The notes below the pieces were generated by a model. That model ran no database searches, was not told the DNA's origin, and saw nothing but the letters and a program-made list of their open reading frames with translations. Positions 1 to 9,025 of a stretch of DNA of 64,000 nt are shown in pieces. Position 1 is the stretch's first letter, and each line of letters starts with the position of its first letter. The position numbers and the translations under genes are program-made. The stretch is from Sutcliffiella sp. FSL R7-0096 (lineage in GTDB: Bacteria > Bacillota > Bacilli > Bacillales > Bacillaceae_I), in contig NZ_CP152003.1 of the NCBI RefSeq assembly GCF_038595065.1, positions 3,142,001-3,206,000 of the forward strand. The letters are read 5' to 3'.

Positions 1-385
1 GATAGGATTCGGTCTTTGGATGCTTCATAATGTCATCGGTCGTTAACCAATGAACGGCCTCCACCTCATCCGGACTTTTAGGATAAGGCTCTCCACTCTG
101 CCATTCACAAAGGAAGACAATGTCCACTACCTCCCTGCCATCCGCCAAAACAAAGGAGGTATTGCGGACATACGACATTTTTTCATAAACGGTGATGCCC
201 ACTTCCTCCATCAATTCCCTTCTTAAGGTCCGTTCCAAAATATCAGAGGAAGCGCCTTCCTGATCAACCGTACCTCCAACAAAGGAAAGCATTCCTGCCG
301 CATGCTCCTCTTTATGGCTCCGCTCAATCATCAGCCACTTGTCCCCTCTGTACACAGCACCTTCCACATTTATAAAAAACATCAT
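1..385 (-). CDS. NUDIX hydrolase (C-terminus cut by window edge)
   Basis: About 128 N-terminal residues are visible, starting MMFFINVEGAVYRGDKWLMI. The Nudix signature is clear near residues 40-62 (GGTVDQEG followed by RRELMEEVGI), which supplies the Mg-binding REXXEEXG core; the spacing before the RE pair is slightly longer than the textbook box. Enzymes of this type hydrolyse a nucleoside diphosphate linked to another group; the substrate cannot be told from sequence. A G-rich ribosome site precedes the ATG. The methyltransferase gene ends 9 bases upstream, so the two are probably cotranscribed. The C-terminal end lies outside the window. Confidence 0.85.
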   Translation of the reverse strand, partial: MMFFINVEGAVYRGDKWLMIERSHKEEHAAGMLSFVGGTVDQEGASSDILERTLRRELMEEVGITVYEKMSYVRNTSFVLADGREVVDIVFLCEWQSGEPYPKSPDEVEAVHWLTTDDIMKHPKTESY

Positions 386-394
386 TATCCCCCC

Positions 395-1147
395 CTATTT
401 TCTTGCTTTAATTATTAACGTTGATGGAAATCTGCGAGTCTTATAAAGAGAATAGTAGCGGTCCGATCTCGGCGCGTCCTCATCTTTAAAGCGTTCTCCC
501 ACTTCACTTTCCACTACATTTTCGATAGTGAAACCCGCTTGAATTAGTTCGTTTATGTAGGTTGCTAGTTTTCTAGTGTGGATTGTCATTGGTGCATCTT
601 CCCCTTTGAATTTTTCAAAGGTCTGAAGTCCTTCTTCCTGATAGGTGCCTTCTAACGTCATGACACCATTTTCACTTTTGATATGTGGATATAATGGGTG
701 GTCCCAGCTAAAAAGGAAGCTTCCTCCCTTTTTTAGATAAGAATGGATTAAAGTTAAAGTTGTTTTTAAATCTGTCGTCCATCCCAGCGCATAGATGGAA
801 TAAACACAATCAAAATACTCTTTAGGAAGATTTATATCCTGTTCCATCGGTGCACTGAATAAACGAGGCTCCAGTCCTTGTAATGTTTTTTCAGCAGTTA
901 ATTTCTGCTCAGATGAAAGGTCCACTCCCCATAATTCGCTTGCACCTTTCTCCTCCGCCATGTATATCAAGGAATGGCCGCTTCCATAACCAATATCCAA
1001 TACCTTTTTATTTTGCAGATCATCCAAAAGCTTCAATTCATCTTCCGTTTGGGAGAATGGACCGTAACTTGGAAGGGCATCCACCCCGTTAAAATAACGT
1101 GCGACCTTGTCCCAGCTTTTGCGATTACTTTCTAATAGTTGATTCAT
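395..1147 (-). CDS. SAM-dependent methyltransferase, class I
   Basis: A 250-residue Rossmann-fold methyltransferase. The SAM-binding motif I is VLDIGYGSGHS at residues 49-59, followed by an acidic strand end (WGVDLS) and a motif IV-like YFDCVYSIYALGW. It resembles the Methyltransf_11/25 group that includes many Bacillus proteins with unknown small-molecule substrates. GAGGGG sits a few bases before the ATG. It lies just upstream of the NUDIX gene and 6 bases after the acetyltransferase stop, so the three form a run. The substrate is unknown; no resistance or antibiotic function is implied. Confidence 0.85.
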   Translation of the reverse strand: MNQLLESNRKSWDKVARYFNGVDALPSYGPFSQTEDELKLLDDLQNKKVLDIGYGSGHSLIYMAEEKGASELWGVDLSSEQKLTAEKTLQGLEPRLFSAPMEQDINLPKEYFDCVYSIYALGWTTDLKTTLTLIHSYLKKGGSFLFSWDHPLYPHIKSENGVMTLEGTYQEEGLQTFEKFKGEDAPMTIHTRKLATYINELIQAGFTIENVVESEVGERFKDEDAPRSDRYYSLYKTRRFPSTLIIKARK

Positions 1148-1152
1148 ATGAA

Positions 1153-2076
1153 TTACCCCTCTATATCTTTTATAAATGCGATCAATCTGCTTGCTTCCTT
1201 AAACCCCAGCCCAATGTGAAAATCATAACTTACATGGTTGTCCAAATGAATGTCCGAGCCGATCTGCTTGCAGCCCTTCTTTTTAAGCCACTGTTCCCCT
1301 ACTTTCACTAGCTTTGCGGAATACCCTTTCCTTCTATGTTGCGGTTTTACATATATTCCTTCTATATATCCAGTTGGGGAGGATTCTGTACCTTCCACAT
1401 AGTCCACTCTGACGGAGAGGTGGATGAATGAAACAAACTCAGAACCTAGTCGGTAGAATAATATTTTGTCTCGTTCAGAAGTCATTATTTGTTGGAAGGA
1501 CTCTTGCAACTCATCCTCGGTACTTTCCGGCCATAAATCTAAGGCCATTTCGGTGTAATGTTCCATATGAACGTTTAATGCTTCTACTACGTCCGCCTCA
1601 CCTTTACCTTCTGCCGATTTAAGTTCCAACTTAGCCAGTTGCTCTCCCCATGAAGCTATCTCCGTTTCAACAAAACCGGCATTTTCATACAATCGTTTCG
1701 CTAGAAGGTTGTCTGGTTCATATCCTATCATGACTAGAGGGATGGAGGTGGAGTTTCCGCTTTTTATGTCCTTCAGCACTTCTGTAAGGGCCGCTTTTCC
1801 ATATCCTTTTCCTTGTGATTTTTCGTCTATCATCAAACGGTAGATCCAGTAATTCCCGTCATCCGGATCAATCCCATACAACGCGAAACCCACCAATTCC
1901 TCTTCAACATAAACCCCCATCGCCTTAAAATCCGGTAAAAATTGCACTTGTGCAATGGAATAAAGATTGGATGCTACGAAATTTTTTTGCTCCTCTGAAA
2001 CCTTTAATTGTATTGCTTTTTCCCAATTTTTAGCTGTAATCTGGCGTAAAGTAATAATAGTGTTATTTTTTTTTAT
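1153..2076 (-). CDS. Tandem GNAT acetyltransferase: polyamine-type half plus AAC(6')-like half
   Basis: Two acetyltransferase domains are fused. The first (from ITLRQITAKNWEKAIQL) has an acetyl-CoA loop SQGKGYGKAAL and a YENAGF end, like Bacillus diamine/spermidine acetyltransferases. The second (from about VVEALNVHMEHYTEMALDLW) has YVKPQHRRKGYSAKLV and DNHVSYDFHIGLGF, the pattern of aminoglycoside 6'-acetyltransferase-like proteins. The frame is open as far as an ATG at 2193, but that would overlap the upstream gene by 131 bases and add residues with no likeness to the family. An AAGAGGGAG ribosome site points to a start near 2076 (ATA) or 2055-2058 (ATT), so the start is unsettled. The substrates are inferred from family only. 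Confidence 0.7.
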   Translation of the reverse strand: MKKNNTIITLRQITAKNWEKAIQLKVSEEQKNFVASNLYSIAQVQFLPDFKAMGVYVEEELVGFALYGIDPDDGNYWIYRLMIDEKSQGKGYGKAALTEVLKDIKSGNSTSIPLVMIGYEPDNLLAKRLYENAGFVETEIASWGEQLAKLELKSAEGKGEADVVEALNVHMEHYTEMALDLWPESTEDELQESFQQIMTSERDKILFYRLGSEFVSFIHLSVRVDYVEGTESSPTGYIEGIYVKPQHRRKGYSAKLVKVGEQWLKKKGCKQIGSDIHLDNHVSYDFHIGLGFKEASRLIAFIKDIEG

Positions 2077-2515
2077 GATATTCTCCCTCTTTCTTGCTTG
2101 CGTATCGTAAGGATAAGACGATAAATAGAACAAAGACAGCAATTCCCAGCAAAATATATGGTAAAATATCCGTCCAATGAAAAGGCGCTTCATGTAGGTA
2201 CACCGCTTTAACCCACTCGTCTTGTTGATCCTCTACTGCTAATGCAGATCCGGTGTCGATTCCATTAATAGCGTAGTACTTCGTACCCTTTTCATAATAG
2301 TTGGACGCGTCCCCATAATAGGCTCCCGTCATATCATCAGCCATACGTTTAACCTCACCAATCTTCTTCCCTAGGTCTGAAGCATCCACAACTTCCTCTG
2401 TGACTTCGTACACTCCACCTTCCCATACAACAAATTTATATGCCCAGCTAAGCGCATGAGCAGTTGAGGAAGCGATTGTGAAGCCAATTACAAACAATAC
2501 TAGGCCCCTTTTCAT
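2063..2515 (-). CDS. Small two-helix membrane protein, unknown function
   Basis: A 150-residue protein that I cannot assign to a family. It has an N-terminal hydrophobic segment (about residues 4-22, possibly a signal anchor), an exported middle part of roughly 90 residues rich in acidic and Tyr residues, and a second membrane helix (about 113-135, ILPYILLGIAVFVLFIVLSL) followed by a short basic tail. Its stop lies inside the ribosome-site region of the acetyltransferase gene, suggesting translational coupling. It follows the signal-peptidase-like gene by about 30 bases, so it may belong to the same transcript as the ECF sigma factor. Confidence 0.65.
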   Translation of the reverse strand: MKRGLVLFVIGFTIASSTAHALSWAYKFVVWEGGVYEVTEEVVDASDLGKKIGEVKRMADDMTGAYYGDASNYYEKGTKYYAINGIDTGSALAVEDQQDEWVKAVYLHEAPFHWTDILPYILLGIAVFVLFIVLSLRYASKKEGEYHKKK

Positions 2516-2545
2516 TTCTGTATCCCCCGTCTATAATCTCTACTA

Positions 2546-3310
2546 TTACTTCCACTTTCGATAGCCCAAAACCTTCCCGTTTATATTTTCAACCGGGACC
2601 GCTCCGAAATTTCTGCTATCAAAGCTTCTCCACCAGGCATCCCCCAGTAGGAAAACATGATTCTCAGGAATAATGAATTTTTTTGTATCGTATTCTTTCG
2701 CATCTTCAAATAACGGACGATTATACACATTATCCAGACCTCTTCCGTAAAATGAATCAAGCTCCTTGTCATCTATATATACCTGTGCATCTTTCAAATA
2801 AATTGTTTCTCCAGGTAGCCCTACTACCCTGGATATACTTTTTGGCTCATTGTTTCTATCAACCATAGTTGGATCGTTTTTTACTTCTTCAGGATACGTA
2901 AAATATACAACATCTCCACGGTTGATTCCATTTACCTCATAAAAGGTGGGGTCGATAACAAGCAGATCTTTGTAGAAATGGTGATCCCCCCTATCCATGG
3001 CATCACTAAACCATTCATATAAAATCATGTCATCTTCATATACCACCCTTTCAATATTGGGTGAAGTGATTGAATCGGTAATTACGGAAGAGGTCGGCTT
3101 ATAGAGCTGACCGATATAAAGTGCCACTAACAACAGAGAGGCACAAAGTGACATTACTACACTAATTGAAAAAATAACCGCCTTCCTTTTGGAGGGTTCT
3201 TTTTTTATACTTTGAAATACCGCTAGTTTTCGATTTTCTGAAAATAATGCATGTTGAAATACAGTGCAATTCATATTTTTCCTAAGTTGTTTCAACTCTT
3301 TATCAATCAT
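2546..3310 (-). CDS. Signal peptidase I-like membrane protein, catalytic dyad apparently lost; candidate anti-sigma factor
   Basis: 254 residues: a basic cytoplasmic N-terminus (about 1-43), one membrane helix (about 44-68), and an outer peptidase S26 domain. Conserved S26 landmarks are present: INRGDVVYF, SRVVGLPGETIYL, and the box-E stretch LLGDAWWRSFDSRNFG. Against Bacillus SipS, the catalytic Ser of GDSM lines up with Ala in SDAM, and the catalytic Lys of YVKRIIG lines up with Ser in SISRVVG. The fold looks kept but the protease looks dead. The gene overlaps the ECF sigma gene by 8 bases. Known ECF pairs of this layout encode a membrane anti-sigma factor second, so that role is inferred. 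The length is larger than the usual 180-190-residue SipS. Confidence 0.75.
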   Translation of the reverse strand: MIDKELKQLRKNMNCTVFQHALFSENRKLAVFQSIKKEPSKRKAVIFSISVVMSLCASLLLVALYIGQLYKPTSSVITDSITSPNIERVVYEDDMILYEWFSDAMDRGDHHFYKDLLVIDPTFYEVNGINRGDVVYFTYPEEVKNDPTMVDRNNEPKSISRVVGLPGETIYLKDAQVYIDDKELDSFYGRGLDNVYNRPLFEDAKEYDTKKFIIPENHVFLLGDAWWRSFDSRNFGAVPVENINGKVLGYRKWK

Positions 3311-3869
3311 TTCCTCTACCTCCTTCCAAATAGTGAACTCGCAACAACTCTTTCCCTCTCGTCAGTCTAGTTTTGACCGTACTCAGATTGATTTGAAGAA
3401 AACTACTGATATCCTTCAAAGCAAGTTCCTCATAGTAAAAGAGGAAAACGACTTCTCTATATTTCAAAGGAAGGGCTAACACATGTCCAACTAAATCAAC
3501 TGTATATTCTTTTTCTATTAGTGCTTGTTCCGGAGTGCTTTTTGGATCTGCATTCACTCTCCCAAACATTTCAGAAATTTTCACTTTTCTATAGTTCCAG
3601 CTCTTTAAATAATCCTTACATTTATTGATGGCTATTCTGTACAAATAGGTTTTCACACTAGACTCACCACGAAAACTGTTCAGACATTTGAAATAAGTTA
3701 CAAATACCTCCTGCGAAATATCTTCAGCTATATTAAAATCCTTCACATAGGAATATGCCAGCTTTACGATACTGCTTCCGTATTGATTCATCACACTTTC
3801 CAGATGTGTTTCTTTATGGTCAAATCCTCGCAAAGGTTCTTCCAATGCTGCCTTCACCCTCTCTTCCAT
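3303..3869 (-). CDS. ECF-type RNA polymerase sigma factor
   Basis: A sigma-70 family extracytoplasmic-function factor. Region 2 is visible as YVKDFNIAEDISQEVFVTYF, with the core-binding DISQEVF motif, followed by TYLYRIAINKCKDYL. Region 4 is LALPLKYREVVFLFYYEELALKDISSFLQINLSTVKTRLTRGKELL, the -35-binding helix-turn-helix. The frame is open to a GTG at 3902, but that codon directly abuts its only purine run. The ATG at 3869 (MEERVKAAL) fits better and lies about 20 bases from a putative self-type ECF promoter. The signal-peptidase-like protein is encoded directly after it with an 8-base overlap, typical of a sigma/anti-sigma unit. Confidence 0.9.
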   Translation of the reverse strand: MEERVKAALEEPLRGFDHKETHLESVMNQYGSSIVKLAYSYVKDFNIAEDISQEVFVTYFKCLNSFRGESSVKTYLYRIAINKCKDYLKSWNYRKVKISEMFGRVNADPKSTPEQALIEKEYTVDLVGHVLALPLKYREVVFLFYYEELALKDISSFLQINLSTVKTRLTRGKELLRVHYLEGGRGND

Positions 3870-3889
3870 TCTTTCACTAATAATTGTTA

Positions 3890-3914
3890 GACGACACTTC
3901 ACCTTGGAAAGTTT
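3890..3914 (-). promoter_or_regulatory. Putative ECF-type promoter (autoregulation)
   Basis: On the minus strand AAAC (3911-3914) is followed after 17 bases by CGTC (3890-3893) and then TA. AAC plus a 16-17 base spacer plus CGTC/CGTA is the known form of Bacillus ECF promoters (SigW, SigX, SigM types). It ends about 20 bases before the proposed ATG, so the factor may activate its own gene. Seen by eye only. Confidence 0.5.
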
Positions 3915-3949
3915 GGAAAATCTTTCTTTTTATTTTATCAAAAGAAAAA

Positions 3950-3988
3950 GCAGGAGAACTTCTTTTTTTAAAAAAGAAATTCTCCTGC
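3950..3988. terminator. Hairpin terminator after the aminopeptidase gene
   Basis: GCAGGAGAACTTC pairs with GAAATTCTCCTGC around an A/T loop. It lies just after the stop of the aminopeptidase gene and before the ECF promoter, so it isolates the sigma unit from upstream transcription. Confidence 0.8.
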
Positions 3989-3995
3989 CTTATGT

Positions 3996-5222
3996 TTAGA
4001 TGGCCCATTCTCCATCTGTCATGATCGCTTCCTGTACACCATCTTCTGTCTCCCCTTTTATGCTCAGTTGTTCTGAACCAATCATAAAGTCGACATGTAT
4101 CATGCTGGTATTGATACCTTTGGCTTCCAGCTCTTCTTTGGTCATTTTTGCTCCGCCTTCAATATTGATGGGATAAGCTGAACCTAGAGCCAAATGACAA
4201 GATGCATTTTCGTCAAACAACGTATTATAGAAAATCACTTCTTGCTTCGAAACTGGTGAACTATGTGGGACAAGTGCAACTTCCCCTAAGTGGAGAGCAC
4301 CTTCATCAGTTTCTAGAAGTTTTTTCAACACCTCATATCCTTGCTCCGCTGAAAATTCCACCACTTTACCTTCCTTGAAAGTAAGACTGAAGTTGTCAAC
4401 CAAGTTTCCGTTCAGGTTTAATGGCTTGGTCGATGCTACAACTCCGTTTACCCCTGTTTTCACAGGCGCCGTAAACACTTCTTCTGTTGGGAGATTCGGC
4501 ACAAAATAAGTACCTTGATCATTGTTCATTCCACCGCCAAGCCAAACCTGTTCTTTTGGAAGCTCGATGGTAAGTTCTGTTCCTGGAGCTTTGTAATAAA
4601 GCTTTTTGTATTTTTTCGTATTAAGCACTTTTAACTTTTCCTGTAATGTCTTGATGTGCTCATTCCATGCCTCAACAGGGTCGTTTTCATTGATGCGTGT
4701 CACCTGGAAGATGTTTTCCCATAGGCTTGCAACCTGTTCTTCCGGAGATTTGTCAGGGTAAAGCTTAGCTGCCCACTCTTGTGAAGGGACGGAAACAATC
4801 GCCCAACTGACCTTAGCAGTTTGAATATATTTTCGGTAGTTTTGCATAGCTTTTGCCTGAGCTTTGTTAGAAATGGATACCCGTTCAGGATCAACTTCTT
4901 TAAGGAGGTCGGGGTTGGATGCAACAATGGACATAAATGCCGCTCCTTCTTCTGCCATTTCCTCCATTCCTTTAACTTTCCACTCTCGGACAGTCTGGAG
5001 GGAGTCGGTGGAGGCCGTTTCATATGTAATCTTTGTAAGTTGCTCGTCGTTCCACTCGGTATGTACGTACTTAGCCCCTAGCTTGTAAGCAATTTTTGCG
5101 ACCTCTCTTACAAATGATGCTGCAGATATCGGTGCATTGATGACAAGTGGTTGATTTTCTTGCAGGTTGATCCCAACTTTTAGCGCAAGTTCTGCGTATT
5201 TGGTCAATTTTTCTTGTAGCAC
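3996..5222 (-). CDS. ampS: Aminopeptidase, M29 family (AmpS/PepS type)
   Basis: 408 residues, the usual length of M29 metallo-aminopeptidases, which remove N-terminal residues from peptides using a two-metal centre. The C-terminal half carries the family metal ligands: the Glu of LHLGEVALVP, the His of ASCHLALGSAYP, and MIHVDFMIGS near the end. The N-terminus (KYAELALKVGINLQENQPLVI) matches the family opening. The start is GTG, 9 bases after AAGGAGG. It is flanked by a terminator downstream and the 21-bp phased repeats upstream, so it is likely monocistronic. Cytoplasmic; a housekeeping role in peptide turnover is inferred. Confidence 0.92.
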   Translation of the reverse strand: MLQEKLTKYAELALKVGINLQENQPLVINAPISAASFVREVAKIAYKLGAKYVHTEWNDEQLTKITYETASTDSLQTVREWKVKGMEEMAEEGAAFMSIVASNPDLLKEVDPERVSISNKAQAKAMQNYRKYIQTAKVSWAIVSVPSQEWAAKLYPDKSPEEQVASLWENIFQVTRINENDPVEAWNEHIKTLQEKLKVLNTKKYKKLYYKAPGTELTIELPKEQVWLGGGMNNDQGTYFVPNLPTEEVFTAPVKTGVNGVVASTKPLNLNGNLVDNFSLTFKEGKVVEFSAEQGYEVLKKLLETDEGALHLGEVALVPHSSPVSKQEVIFYNTLFDENASCHLALGSAYPINIEGGAKMTKEELEAKGINTSMIHVDFMIGSEQLSIKGETEDGVQEAIMTDGEWAI

Positions 5223-5333
5223 TATGTATTTCCTCCTTTTGGTTGATGAGATTATTGTATCATAGGATGCGGAATGTAGGATTAGGGAGATTTTATATCT
5301 TTTGACGAAGAGAATTTCACTGGTTCCTAGGGG

Positions 5334-5459
5334 ATTGTGACTTTTAGAAGGGTGATTGTGACTTTTTCATCGGTTATTGTGACTTTTCCAGGGCTCATTG
5401 TGACTTTTTCATCGGTTATTGTGACTTTTCCAGGGCTCATTGTGACTTTTTCACTTTCA
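5334..5459. repeat. Six copies of ATTGTGACTTTT at exact 21-bp spacing
   Basis: ATTGTGACTTTT begins at 5334, 5355, 5376, 5397, 5418 and 5439. The 9-base fillers alternate between TCATCGGTT-type and CCAGGGCTC-type, so part of the array is a duplicated 42-bp unit. It lies between ptsI and the aminopeptidase gene, next to the ptsI terminator. It is not coding by any supportable start. The 21-bp period equals two DNA helical turns. Confidence 0.9.
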
Positions 5460-5485
5460 GCTCACCCACCGCAACAAACAAAAAA

Positions 5486-5518
5486 GGCCAACTCCTCCTA
5501 AATAGGAAAGTTGGCCCC
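5486..5518 (-). terminator. Terminator of the ptsHI operon
   Basis: On the minus strand GGCCAACTTTCC pairs with GGAGGAGTTGGCC and is followed by TTTTTTG. It lies about 10 bases past the ptsI stop codon. Confidence 0.9.
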
Positions 5519-5528
5519 AGTATAATGT

Positions 5529-7247
5529 TTACACATTAAATTTCTCTTTCACGAATTCCACTACTTCTTCTGCCGTCCCCATGCTAAGGATCTCTTCACG
5601 GTAGGAAGCAGCTTCCTCCTTGGAGATGCCACGCAATTGACTTCTTGCAGGAAGGATGGATGTCGCGCTCATGCTGAACTCGTCCAGTCCAAGTCCGAGA
5701 AGGATTGGGATCGCGATTGGATCGCCAGCCATTTCCCCACACATGCCGGCCCATTTGCCGTTTTTGTGTGCAGCTTGGATGACATTATCCACCAGACGCA
5801 GGATTGCCGGGTTGTATGGTTGATACAGGTAGGACACCTGCTCATTCATACGGTCCGCTGCCATTGTGTATTGAATCAAGTCATTCGTTCCAATGCTGAA
5901 GAAGTCAACTTCCTTCGCGAAAATATCAGCCATGACCGCTGTTGATGGAATTTCCACCATGATACCGATCTCGATATTTTCGTTAACTGTTGTACCGTTC
6001 TTCACAAGCTCTTCTTTTTCTTCCATAAGAATTGCTTTTGCTTGGCGGAACTCGTCCAATGTCGCAATCATCGGGAACATGATTTTTAGATTTCCGTAAG
6101 AGCTAGCACGCAATAATGCACGAAGTTGCGTACGGAAGATATCCTGTTCCTCTAGGCAAAGGCGAATCGCACGGAAGCCTAGGAATGGATTCATTTCTTT
6201 TGGAAGGTTTAAGTAAGGTAGTTCCTTATCTCCACCGATGTCCAATGTGCGGACAACAACCGGTTTGCCTTCCATGCTTTCAAGAACCTCTTTATAGGCT
6301 TTGTATTGCTCGTCCTCTGTTGGAAGTTCGGTTCTGCCCATGTAAAGGAATTCTGTACGGTAAAGACCGACGCCTTCTCCGCCATTTGCCAGAACACCCT
6401 TCACATCTTTAGGAGTACCGATGTTAGCAGCAAGCTCGACTTCTTGTCCGTCAGAAGAAAGACTCTTCTCGTTTACAAGCTTAGCCCACTCTTTTTTCTG
6501 CTCTTCATGCTTTTCTTGCTTTTCTTTGTAAGTAGCAATTTCTTCTTCTGTCGGATCGACGATTACCACACCGTCCAAACCATCAATAATAACCATCGTG
6601 TCATTTTGAATGGCTTCCATGACGTTCTTTGTTCCAACTACCGCTGGAATTTCCATGGAACGGGCCATGATGGCGGAGTGAGACGTACGTCCACCGATAT
6701 CAGTCGTAAATGCTTTTACATATTGACGATTAAGCTGTGCAGTGTCAGAAGGAGTCAAGTCTTCTGCGATGATGATCACTTCTTCTGATATAAGTGCCGG
6801 ATTGGAAACTGTCACACCTAAAAGGTGGGCAAGCACACGTTTCGTCACGTCGCGGATATCCGCTGCGCGCTCCTTCATGTACTCGTTATCCATCTGTTCA
6901 AACATGTTGATGAACATGCCTGCTGTTTCATCTAAAGCATACTCAGCATTTACACTGCTATTTGTAATTTTATCTTTAATTGGATTTAAAAGTTCAGGAT
7001 CACTTAATACAAGCAGATGGGCCGAAAAGATTTCCGCCTTGTCCGCTCCAAGCTCCTTGTGAGCGTGGTCCTTGATCTTTTCCAATTCTGTTTTAGAAAT
7101 TTCTACTGCTTTCTCAAATCTTTCCACTTCCGCTTGGGCATTGTCGATCGTCTTTTTTTCCACAGATAGCTCTGGGTTTTCCAGACGGTATGCTTTCGCA
7201 ATGGCAATCCCGCTAGAAGCAGGTATTCCCTGGATCGTGTTTGACAT
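5529..7247 (-). CDS. ptsI: PTS enzyme I (phosphoenolpyruvate-protein phosphotransferase)
   Basis: 572 residues, the normal enzyme I length. It takes phosphate from phosphoenolpyruvate and passes it to HPr, the first step of sugar uptake by the phosphotransferase system. The phospho-accepting His is in [21 protein letters not shown] near residue 190; the PEP-binding TIM-barrel half holds [22 protein letters not shown] and the signature [19 protein letters not shown]; the catalytic Cys lies in [10 protein letters not shown]. The ATG shares one base with the ptsH stop (TAATG), so the two are translationally coupled. Cytoplasmic. Confidence 0.98.
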
Positions 7248-7513
7248 TATTCCCCTAACCCTTCTGATTTCAAAGTTTCTTCGATTGCAGAAATTGCCTC
7301 GCTCTCATCAGAACCTTCTGCAACAATCTTGATTTCCGCGCCTTGAGGGATCCCTAAAGACATAACACCCATGATGGATTTCAGGTTTACAGATTTACCG
7401 TTATACTCAAGGTTAACGTCCGCATCAAATTTACCTGCCGTTTGTACCAATTGAGTAGCTGGACGTGCGTGGATTCCTGAATCTGCTGTTACTTTGAATG
7501 TTTTTTCTGCCAT
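7247..7513 (-). CDS. ptsH: HPr phosphocarrier protein
   Basis: 88 residues from [21 protein letters not shown]. His15 (SGIHARPAT) is the site phosphorylated by enzyme I, and Ser46 ([11 protein letters not shown]) is the regulatory site phosphorylated by HPr kinase, which then drives CcpA-mediated catabolite control. The frame extends to a TTG at 7522, but the ATG at 7513 follows AAAGGAG at a good distance. It is the first gene after the leader at 7712-7817; no ptsG precedes it, unlike B. subtilis. Confidence 0.98.
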
Positions 7514-7554
7514 TGTAATCAAACTCCTTTGGGATATGTGTATTTTTTTTGATC

Positions 7555-7567
7555 GTACATAATGTAC
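7555..7567. promoter_or_regulatory. 13-bp palindrome upstream of ptsH
   Basis: GTACATAATGTAC is a perfect inverted repeat with 6-base arms around one base, 42 bases upstream of the ptsH start. On the minus strand a weak TTGAAA-17-TACATT promoter-like pair overlaps it. It could be an operator or chance; nothing identifies the binder. Confidence 0.25.
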
Positions 7568-7711
7568 ATGGTTTTTTACACTGTTTCAACCTATAGTTAC
7601 AGAGCCAAAAACCTGATCAGAAACTATTCAACTAAAAGAACCTTGTTCCCTTTATTCCTATACCCTGTAGCTTTCACCAGTAATCGCGGTGAATATGTAG
7701 GAAAGAATATA

Positions 7712-7797
7712 GAAAAAGGCATGAGAGAGGGGCTTATCTCTATAAAAGGGTACACTCGTCCCCTTAGTATGGATCAAAACCTCTTCACTCATGCCTG
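7712..7797 (-). terminator. Conditional terminator of the ptsHI leader
   Basis: On the minus strand GGCATGAGTGAAGAGG (7780-7795) pairs with CCCCTCTCTCATGCC (7718-7733), followed by TTTTTC. The loop holds a second small hairpin built on AAGGGG/CCCTTTT. Its upstream arm overlaps the antiterminator element, so forming one should exclude the other. It lies about 200 bases before ptsH. Confidence 0.75.
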
Positions 7798-7817
7798 ATC
7801 GTATCAGTAACACGTAA
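7783..7817 (-). promoter_or_regulatory. Ribonucleic antiterminator (RAT), GlcT/LicT-type
   Basis: The minus strand reads GTTACTG, then ATACGAT, then CAGGCATGAG, with CTGAT/ATCAG as the inner stem. GTTACTG…CAGGCA is the core shared by RAT targets of the BglG/SacY/LicT/GlcT family of PTS-controlled antiterminators, and the wording is close to the known B. subtilis ptsG leader. Overlap with the terminator at 7712-7797 gives the classic arrangement. Identification is from memory of the motif, not a search. Confidence 0.75.
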
Positions 7818-7832
7818 AGTTCTTATCTATGT

Positions 7833-7846
7833 TGAAAGCATTTGCA
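7833..7846. promoter_or_regulatory. Possible cre site (CcpA) upstream of the pts leader
   Basis: TGAAAGCATTTGCA matches 12 of 14 positions of TGWAANCGNTNWCA. It lies just upstream of the antiterminator, where the promoter of the leader should be, so it could mediate catabolite control of ptsHI. Weak evidence on its own. Confidence 0.3.
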
Positions 7847-7924
7847 TGAACATTTAGTTGAACGCTTCTTAGCTGTCCGTTGAGATTGTAGCATAAAAAA
7901 CAAAAGCTTGGCAATACTTTTGAC

Positions 7925-8113
7925 TCATACTCCATTCTTTTTCTTCTTAAAAAGCATCATGATTGCATAAGGGAGCACCCCGAAGAGCTGAAACGCGATT
8001 GGAGAACGCTCTTGCTTTTTAAGTTCCCTTTGCTCGCGCTTTACTTCCTTTGGCTGATCCATGTAGGTTACAAGCTGCTGTGTCACATATTTCACGTAAT
8101 CATTCGTTTTCAA
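7925..8113 (-). CDS. yqzE: YqzE family protein
   Basis: 62 residues beginning MKTNDYVKYVTQQLVTYMDQPKE and ending in a hydrophobic segment, LFGVLPYAIMMLFKKKK. This matches the small YqzE protein that lies next to the comG operon in B. subtilis. It has a charged, helical N-terminal two-thirds and a likely C-terminal membrane anchor. No biochemical role is known to me. A GGTGGTGG stretch before the ATG is the probable ribosome site. It follows aroK with a 30-base gap and could share its transcript. Confidence 0.85.
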   Translation of the reverse strand: MKTNDYVKYVTQQLVTYMDQPKEVKREQRELKKQERSPIAFQLFGVLPYAIMMLFKKKKNGV

Positions 8114-8145
8114 TTCAGTCCACCACCAAAAAGATTCTTATATCT

Positions 8146-8661
8146 TTAGTGTGGACTGTTATTCCATGTTTTAATCGCGTTATATACGGCTTCTGTAGCA
8201 TCTTCCAAGGTCAGCCCGGTTGTATTCACCTTGATGTGTGCTTGATTATATAGAGGTAGACGTGTTTTAAAAAGATCTATGACCTCTTCTTTCTTTTTCT
8301 GTTTTACAAGCGGTCTGGTTGTATCATTCTCCAAACGCGCCCATAGTACTTCCGGGTCTGCGTAAAGAAATATCATACAGCCGTTTTCTTTCATCCAGTC
8401 AATGTTTGCCTGTGCTGTCACTATTCCACCACCAGTTGTCACAAGGGTATTACTCACAGATAGTTCTTGTAGTGTCTTAGTTTCAAGCTCGCGAAAATAA
8501 CACTCTCCATATTTTTTGAAGATATCATTTATTTCCAATTCCATGTTCTGTTCAATAAGTGTATCTGTATCGTAGACAGGGAAATTTAGTTTGGTTGCCA
8601 ACGCCTGTCCGATTGTCGTTTTTCCCGCTCCCATAAACCCTGTAAGATAGATGCTCTTCAT
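8146..8661 (-). CDS. aroK: Shikimate kinase
   Basis: 171 residues. It phosphorylates shikimate at O3 with ATP, the fifth step of the chorismate (aromatic amino acid) pathway. The Walker A loop is GFMGAGKTT (residues 8-16); the substrate-binding Asp is in YDTDTLIE, the Arg in YFRELETKTL, and the glycine-rich TTGGGIV follows. The lid region holds the conserved Arg in DTTRPLV. AGAGGGAAG precedes the ATG. It is cytoplasmic and appears to be the first gene of a short unit with yqzE. Confidence 0.95.
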   Translation of the reverse strand: MKSIYLTGFMGAGKTTIGQALATKLNFPVYDTDTLIEQNMELEINDIFKKYGECYFRELETKTLQELSVSNTLVTTGGGIVTAQANIDWMKENGCMIFLYADPEVLWARLENDTTRPLVKQKKKEEVIDLFKTRLPLYNQAHIKVNTTGLTLEDATEAVYNAIKTWNNSPH

Positions 8662-8740
8662 TATTCTTCCCTCTCTTTCTTGGGATTCCTCTTTTTATTA
8701 TATTATAGGGGAAACCAGGCTCCCCCTCCACCTCTTCCTA

Positions 8741-8777
8741 TTTAAAAAGTGCCTCCAGTCAAGGAGACACTTTTGGA
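8741..8777 (-). terminator. Terminator downstream of the comG region
   Basis: On the minus strand AAAAGTGTCTCC pairs with GGAGGCACTTTTT, ending in a T run. It follows the pseudogene at 8790-9025 and would end transcripts coming from comGG. Confidence 0.85.
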
Positions 8778-8789
8778 AAAGTATACCGT

Positions 8790-9025
8790 TTAGTTATCTG
8801 GCATGACCCAAATAACTTCTGCAGACTGAATAAAGAAGCTAGAATTTCTAGCAACTAAAAAGACATGATCCTAATTAACATCCTTCAGTTAAACTCTGAT
8901 AAATCCCTGCGTCTTCTCCATCACCACTTTAGTTCCGACGATACTTCTTAAGGTATGGTACTCAAGTACTCATAGGCTTCTATTCCCATATATTGAACGG
9001 GCATCCCATTGTCCGCTTGATTCAT
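8790..9025 (-). pseudogene. Decayed DUF2642 (YuzF-like) gene
   Basis: From an ATG at 9025 with AAAGGAG upstream the frame reads MNQADNGMPVQYMGIEAYEY and stops. After a two-base frame change it continues LRSIVGTKVVMEKTQGFIRV, then a stop, LKDVN, a stop, DHVFLVARNSSFFIQSAEVI and WVMPDN. The order IVGTKV / TxGxxxxxLKDV / DHVxLV / IxWVMPD is that of DUF2642 proteins such as B. subtilis YuzF (about 78 residues). The total of 236 bases equals 78 codons plus 2, in keeping with one frameshift. Two in-frame stops make a working product unlikely. Confidence 0.75.

What the first reader, a model, noticed from the sequence alone, without database searches (positions are those of the whole stretch)
2546..3310. 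Signal-peptidase-I fold without its catalytic Ser and Lys, encoded as partner of an ECF sigma factor
Seen: the S26 landmarks RGDVV, GLPGE, GD…SFDSRN are present, but the catalytic Ser position reads Ala (SDAM) and the catalytic Lys position reads Ser (SISRVVG). The gene overlaps the ECF sigma gene by 8 bases and has one membrane helix after a basic cytoplasmic segment. Known: ECF factors are usually held by a membrane anti-sigma factor encoded next. Inference: a dead signal peptidase has become a sensing anti-sigma factor, perhaps recognising signal peptides or their fragments outside the membrane. I know of no described system of this kind.
Basis: partly seen in the sequence, partly recalled or inferred. 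Interest (0 to 1): 0.78.

Follow-up and report, generated by a model that had tools for sequence, protein, structure and literature searches.

The report
Dead signal peptidase as anti-sigma sensor
A protease fold that has lost its cutting residues appears to have become the outside sensor of a membrane protein that holds a gene-switching sigma factor in check, and relatives of this dead domain recur in many Bacillus-like bacteria.

Summary
The minus-strand gene 2546-3310 encodes 254 aa: a basic 44-aa cytoplasmic segment, one membrane helix and an S26-fold domain (Pfam E=2.5e-25). The catalytic Lys position is Ser160; the Ser position is most likely Ala104. The gene overlaps an ECF sigma gene by 8 bases.
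It belongs to a family; of 68 distinct members collected, none keeps both Ser and Lys. 27 of 68 follow an ECF gene, and all 27 have a cytoplasmic segment plus helix (hydropathy). 41 do not; 37 of these look like lipoproteins. A quick tree forces at least six changes between the two forms.
The first ~40 residues resemble the pre-PadR extension of LstR, the partner of Listeria sigma C. In the own genome three ECFs of the SigC clade precede proteins that start with this module but end differently (PadR; dead S26; DUF4871-like); a fourth ECF of that clade (L147) does not. An ECF-type promoter (AAAC-N17-CGTC) precedes the operon.
Anti-sigma function is very likely, sensing by the dead domain likely, the ligand unknown; signal-peptide recognition is only a guess. 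New sensor variant of a known kind of system.

The parts
3306..3869 (-). ECF sigma factor, SigC subfamily (PRK09415, 203.5 bits, cut-off 198); 188 aa from ATG 3869 (longest ORF begins at GTG 3902); stop codon 3303-3305
   Evidence: sigma tree
3890..3914 (-). ECF-type promoter: AAAC (3914-3911), 17-base spacer, CGTC (3893-3890); presumably autoregulatory
   Evidence: conserved in six aligned loci (one base differs in L013); in 6 genomes only the own operon matches with 0-1 mismatches
2546..3310 (-). dead S26-fold membrane protein, predicted anti-sigma factor, 254 aa
3179..3310 (-). residues 1-44: cytoplasmic module, predicted to bind sigma, similar to the pre-PadR extension of LstR
3113..3178 (-). 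residues 45-66: membrane helix
   Evidence: hydropathy; helix 49-66 in the AF2 model
2549..3076 (-). residues 79-254: extracytoplasmic dead S26 domain (ITDxxT, SDAMDRGDH, RGDVV, SRVVGLPGE, LDSFYG, GDAWWRSFDSR)
2063..2515 (-). third gene of the operon: 150 aa with signal-sequence-like N-terminus and C-terminal hydrophobic helix; possible output gene
   Evidence: also downstream in L006, L009-L013 (searches list, 72); no confident family

Best explanation
The gene encodes a membrane anti-sigma factor for the ECF sigma encoded directly before it. Residues 1-44 bind the SigC-type sigma in the cytoplasm (inferred from the shared module). A single helix crosses the membrane. The outer domain is a signal-peptidase fold that can no longer cut in the usual way and works as a receptor: binding of an extracytoplasmic ligand, or a change in the envelope, changes its state and leads to release of sigma, most likely through stepwise proteolysis of the anti-sigma as known for RsiV (inferred, not tested). 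Free sigma then transcribes its own operon: sigma, anti-sigma and the small membrane protein at 2063-2515. The same dead domain also exists as a stand-alone lipoprotein, including one elsewhere in this genome, and has been swapped repeatedly between the two forms. Shown: fold, loss of Lys, lack of a conserved Ser, gene order, promoter sequence, shared N-terminal module, family distribution. Inferred: sigma binding, sensing, release mechanism, autoregulation. Ligand unknown.
For: S26 fold by sequence and by model (SpsB E=2.3e-7, SipA 5.1e-6). 0 of 68 family members hold both Ser and Lys. 27 of 68 follow an ECF gene and all 27 have a cytoplasmic N-terminus plus helix; of the other 41, 37 have a lipobox, 2 a short anchor, 2 are truncated. 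LstR N-terminus profile: 10 of 68 hits at E<=1 (6 at E<=1.3e-6), all sigma-linked; none among 68 reversed sequences, 15 active S26 or 41 sigma-free members. On 154 ORFs from 25 own-genome loci plus P0001, a profile built from other genera hits three distinct proteins at E<=1e-5, each directly after an ECF of the SigC clade; the next hits are one forward ORF at 0.39 and one reversed ORF (in two loci) at 0.6. The 13 best-scoring LstR-like loci all have an ECF directly upstream. Promoter. Literature: deletion of lstR raises the sigC operon about 140-fold and its expression depends wholly on sigma C (PMC6624303, passages).
Against: No interaction, release or ligand was tested. The module similarity is clear only in the window's own clade: 17 of 27 sigma-linked members gave no hit at E<=1. 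A fourth own-genome ECF placed in the SigC clade, L147 (long branch), is followed by a 112-aa protein that the module profile does not hit; only 20 of the 39 own-genome region-4 hits had loci and were examined. In the Listeria paper a change in LstR's DNA-reading part derepresses as much as the deletion, which its authors read as ordinary repression. AF2 confidence is low in the Ser-box region (pLDDT 40-47) and overall (60.8). Placement of the Ser box differs between aligners.
Confidence: 0.68

Rival explanations
1. The protein is an anti-sigma factor, but the dead S26 domain is only a structural cap or protease-protection domain; the signal is sensed by a separate site-1 protease.
For: No ligand known; the outer domain has diverged strongly (29-48% identity of the window protein to all but its closest relatives), and one sigma-linked copy (L095, first copy) has lost the MDRG motif.
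Against: A specific motif (DxM[DE]RG[ND]H, FY, W226/R228) is kept in both the membrane-bound and the lipoprotein form; repeated change between forms suggests a transferable binding function.
Confidence: 0.2
2. The domain keeps an enzymatic activity with other residues (for example D103, H110, D224) and is a processing enzyme, not a sensor.
For: D103 in 61, R107 in 60, D224 in 67, M105 in 67 of 68.
Against: H110 in only 48 of 68; no conserved Ser or Lys; fusion to a cytoplasmic module beside an ECF in 27 of 68.
Confidence: 0.06
3. The protein is a signal-peptidase-like assembly factor similar to SipA and only happens to lie beside a sigma gene.
For: SipA is a characterised dead S26 protein and is among the closest structures.
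Against: Recurrent coupling to ECF genes across genera (27 of 68); cytoplasmic module shared with LstR; no sortase or pilin recognised by eye among the translations (no profile search was run).
Confidence: 0.04

Closest known systems
RsiV / sigma V of Bacillus subtilis
   Same: Anti-sigma factor of an ECF that is itself the receptor (for lysozyme); signal peptidase does the first cut (PMC4183432, abstract and outline seen)
   Different: Outer domain is another fold (recalled); here the outer domain is itself a signal-peptidase fold
LstR / sigma C of Listeria
   Same: Related ECF (LstR-partnered and 25 of 27 S26-partnered ECFs in one clade, SH-aLRT 98), same gene order, similar first ~40 residues, operon that is its own main target (PMC6624303, passages seen)
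   Different: C-terminal part is a PadR domain, from residue 54 in the own-genome relative L177
SipA/LepA of Streptococcus pyogenes (4n31, 4k8w)
   Same: Signal-peptidase fold without catalytic Ser and Lys (Asp and Gly there), peptide cleft kept (PMC4049620, abstract and outline seen)
   Different: Pilus assembly factor; other replacement residues; no ECF coupling described in what I saw
PbpP / sigma P of Bacillus thuringiensis
   Same: A cell-envelope enzyme fold used as a sensor in ECF control (PMC8092216, title, listing and outline seen)
   Different: By the section headings PbpP acts on a separate anti-sigma factor, RsiP; here enzyme fold and anti-sigma are one chain

Membership tests
Type I signal peptidase (S26A) | S26 fold | tested here: met
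Type I signal peptidase (S26A) | catalytic Lys | tested here: not met
   Ser160; Lys in 16 of 16 viral-contig rows (L119, with His, not in that alignment) and Lys-Arg in 47 of 50 comparison sequences; in the dead family Lys in 1 of 68
Type I signal peptidase (S26A) | catalytic Ser | tested here: not met
   Ala104 by the best reading; other placements of the Ser box give no conserved Ser either
Type I signal peptidase (S26A) | cleaves preproteins | not testable with these tools
   needs purified protein
Membrane anti-sigma factor of an ECF | encoded directly after the ECF, same strand | tested here: met
   8-base overlap; also in L006, L007, L009-L013
Membrane anti-sigma factor of an ECF | cytoplasmic N-terminal segment plus membrane helix | tested here: met
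   hydropathy; model helix 49-66
Membrane anti-sigma factor of an ECF | N-terminal segment similar to other partners of the same ECF clade | tested here: met
   not found in the partner of L147
Membrane anti-sigma factor of an ECF | binds and inhibits sigma | not testable with these tools
   none
LstR (PRK09416) | C-terminal PadR domain | tested here: not met
   only PF10502 found in P0001; NF006931 22.5 bits, cut-off 112, residues 3-49 only
SipA pilus assembly factor | encoded in a pilin/sortase cluster | tested here: inconclusive
   translations (window 1-9000) read by eye show none; no profile search for sortases was run

The most novel reading that the evidence does not exclude
The dead peptidase is a decoy of the cell's own signal peptidase: it reads the supply of signal peptides or the presence of natural signal-peptidase inhibitors (arylomycin-like; recalled), so that the ECF reports trouble in protein export, while the stand-alone lipoprotein form acts as a sponge for the same ligand. 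It would follow from the shared module that Listeria LstR is a soluble anti-sigma factor as well as a repressor.
Probability: 0.12. Interest if true: 0.85.

Novelty: new variant of a known kind. Interest (0 to 1): 0.66.

Why it matters
It shows a protease fold turned into a recurrent, interchangeable outer domain of ECF partners, and points to a short putative sigma-binding module shared with LstR, whose link to sigma C the Listeria paper leaves open. It also marks a naming problem: NCBI's signal peptidase I equivalog model scores P0001 above its cut-off and matches 31 of 31 family members scanned at E<=0.1, although the catalytic pair is gone. The predictions are simple to test in a laboratory Bacillus.

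Tried and rejected
Regulon search: the promoter pattern with up to 2 mismatches in six genomes gave 10 matches, 6 of them the own operon; the other 4 are no more than the reversed-pattern control (13 in all), so no wider regulon could be named. Output gene 2063-2515: only sub-threshold similarity to lantibiotic-immunity domains (NF033433 E=0.0062; PF18218 E=0.12); not claimed. ECF promoters before the sigma-free genes: 2 of 41 with a strict pattern, both from one related pair (L098, L099), 0.185 expected from shuffles; not enough for a claim. Viral contigs: 34 S26 loci, none of the dead family; used as comparison. Comparison set: 50 sequences (15 cellular, 35 from viral contigs), 49 with an SM box by a loose pattern, 47 with Lys-Arg; the other three, near-identical rows L119, L133, L134, have His-Arg. 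Alignment with full-length enzymes placed the Ser box outside SDAM, so the structure job used viral-contig rows cut after the Ser box; from the 21 rows listed, L107, L110, L116, L119 and L126 were not used. Rows dropped: one search used 6 of the 15 active rows; the 68 members are counted after merging identical last-150-residue ends. L097 counts as sigma-linked although its sigma ORF ends early, 133 bases before it. Plasmid search: 27 records matched, only one over at least 80% of the query; that one (L141) is in the 68, the rest were not examined. The second structure job was not used.

Rejected: active signal peptidase (no Lys, no conserved Ser); chance similarity (E-values). Pilus factor is thought unlikely from context only.

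Full report
What is there. The gene lies on the minus strand, 2546-3310, 254 aa. Upstream and overlapping by 8 bases is an ECF sigma gene of the SigC subfamily (PRK09415 203.5 bits, cut-off 198). A promoter-like sequence of ECF type, AAAC-N17-CGTC, lies at 3914-3890, inside the GTG-extended sigma ORF, so the sigma start is probably ATG 3869. A third gene, 2063-2515, follows. Two Sutcliffiella horikoshii records encode the protein at 79% and 78% identity.

Is it a dead signal peptidase? The outer domain is S26 by Pfam (E=2.5e-25), by NCBIfam, by a profile search of solved structures (4nv4 E=2.5e-15) and by Foldseek on an AF2 model (SpsB 2.3e-7; model mean pLDDT 60.8, best ten-residue blocks 84-92). 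The Lys position is Ser160, next to R161, which is present in 68 of 68 family members. All 16 viral-contig S26 rows have Lys there; three near-identical rows not in that alignment (L119, L133, L134) have His, so Lys-Arg stands in 47 of 50 comparison sequences. The Ser position is best read as Ala104. MAFFT and hhalign, given full-length enzymes, put the Ser box within residues 75-85, so this is not proven. Under every reading no Ser is conserved.

The family. Profile searches found the dead family in 38 of 397 genomes of the order sample (12 of 135 genera; E<=1e-25), 20 of 398 of the class sample (10 of 145 genera; E<=1e-22) and 1 of 299 of the phylum sample, the own genome (E<=1e-18). The samples share some genomes, and the searches scored only the best 6, 7 and 10 candidates per genome. 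After merging identical ends, 68 distinct members score 96-270 bits, against 48-66 for 15 active S26 from the own and related genomes. Ser column: N 29, A 14, S 11, E 3, G 3, D 3, T 2, V 1, gap 2. Lys column: S 28, A 16, G 10, T 7, I 2, N 2, K 1, V 1, H 1. The single Lys (L086) goes with Asp at the Ser place, so 0 of 68 hold both. L010, an orthologue 78% identical to the window protein, still has Ser. Other conserved features appear: D103 (61), M105 (67), R107 (60), G108 (62), F187 and Y188 (67 each), W226 and R228 (61 each), D224 (67), each of 68.

Two forms. 27 of 68 follow an ECF gene within 150 bases; by hydropathy all 27 have a segment of 41 residues or more before a membrane helix. 41 of 68 have no ECF beside them: 37 have a lipobox (33 by pattern, 4 LMGC read by eye), 2 a short membrane anchor (L088, second copy of L095), 2 are truncated (L063, L070). 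The tree puts the 68 on one side against the six active rows used (SH-aLRT 100) and needs 9 changes of form by parsimony, at least 6 forced by strongly supported branches (quick search, several long branches). L089 (sigma-linked) and L091 (lipoprotein) are sisters at 99; L087 (sigma-linked) and L088 (stand-alone, short anchor) at 97.

Why the N-terminus is probably a sigma-binding module. Residues 3-49 match positions 2-48 of the LstR model (E=1e-4). In Listeria LstR is encoded after sigma C. In the 13 best-scoring LstR-like loci of a class sample an ECF gene is directly upstream in 13 of 13, and PadR begins only at residue 54 in the own-genome relative. A profile of 13 LstR N-termini found 10 of 68 dead-S26 proteins at E<=1, all sigma-linked, 6 of them at E<=1.3e-6, and none among the reversed, active or sigma-free sequences; 17 of the 27 sigma-linked ones gave no hit. 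A profile without the own genus, run on 154 ORFs from 25 own-genome loci plus P0001, found three distinct proteins at E<=1e-5: LstR, the window protein, and a 344-aa membrane protein (L150) with a DUF4871-like end (24.2 bits, cut-off 25); next came a forward ORF at 0.39 and a reversed one at 0.6. Each of the three directly follows an ECF of the SigC clade. Against this, L147, placed in the same clade on a long branch, is followed by a 112-aa protein without the module, and only 20 of 39 own-genome region-4 hits were examined. In the sigma tree 25 of 27 S26-partnered ECFs fall with the LstR-partnered ones (98), while L016 and L087 fall with another ECF clade (97), so the dead domain seems to have been recruited by at least two ECF lineages.

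Literature. PMC6624303 (passages): loss of lstR raises the Listeria sigC operon about 140-fold; expression is wholly sigma C dependent; sigma C acts mainly on its own operon; the term anti-sigma does not occur in its main text. This fits an anti-sigma role of the LstR N-terminus, but a change in the DNA-reading part derepresses as much, so it is not proof. Searches for a signal-peptidase-like anti-sigma factor and for LstR with the word anti-sigma listed no paper that describes either, judged by titles and starts of abstracts; the library lacks most subscription papers.

Mechanism. Most likely: an outer receptor domain, a membrane helix, a cytoplasmic sigma clamp, release by stepwise proteolysis, positive autoregulation, and 2063-2515 as an output. 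Only anatomy and homology are shown.

Noticed in passing
G000:C1:839729-840154 (L177, L155): Own genome carries an ECF-LstR pair; LstR has a ~50-aa N-terminal part before its PadR domain that resembles the window protein's cytoplasmic segment, so LstR may be an anti-sigma factor as well as a repressor.
   Followed up: partly
L150:441-1475 (-): Another own-genome ECF of the SigC clade is followed by a 344-aa membrane protein with the same module and a DUF4871-like end (just below cut-off).
   Followed up: partly
L147:1147-2026: An ECF placed in the SigC clade (long branch) is followed by a 112-aa protein without the module.
   Followed up: partly
G000:C1:3554430-3555032 (L005, L028, L080): Stand-alone lipoprotein form of the dead S26 domain in the own genome, with no ECF in the stretches examined.
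   Followed up: partly
L095/L105 (G566): One ECF gene followed by two dead S26 genes in tandem; the first has lost the MDRG motif and has His at the Lys place.
   Followed up: no
L106 (G454), L092 (G745): Dead S26 domain inside longer sigma-linked proteins (ORFs of 518 and 390 aa) with extra unassigned parts.
   Followed up: partly
L086 (G690): The only family member of 68 that keeps the Lys, but with Asp in place of Ser.
   Followed up: no
window 2063-2515 (-): 150-aa membrane protein conserved behind this sigma pair; faint sub-threshold similarity to lantibiotic-immunity domains.
   Followed up: partly
L141 (plasmid NZ_CP019641.1 of Planococcus lenghuensis): Dead S26 lipoprotein on a plasmid, annotated as lepB, signal peptidase I; likely misnamed.
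   Followed up: partly
L119, L133, L134 (viral contigs): Three near-identical S26 proteins with Ser kept but His at the Lys position.
   Followed up: no
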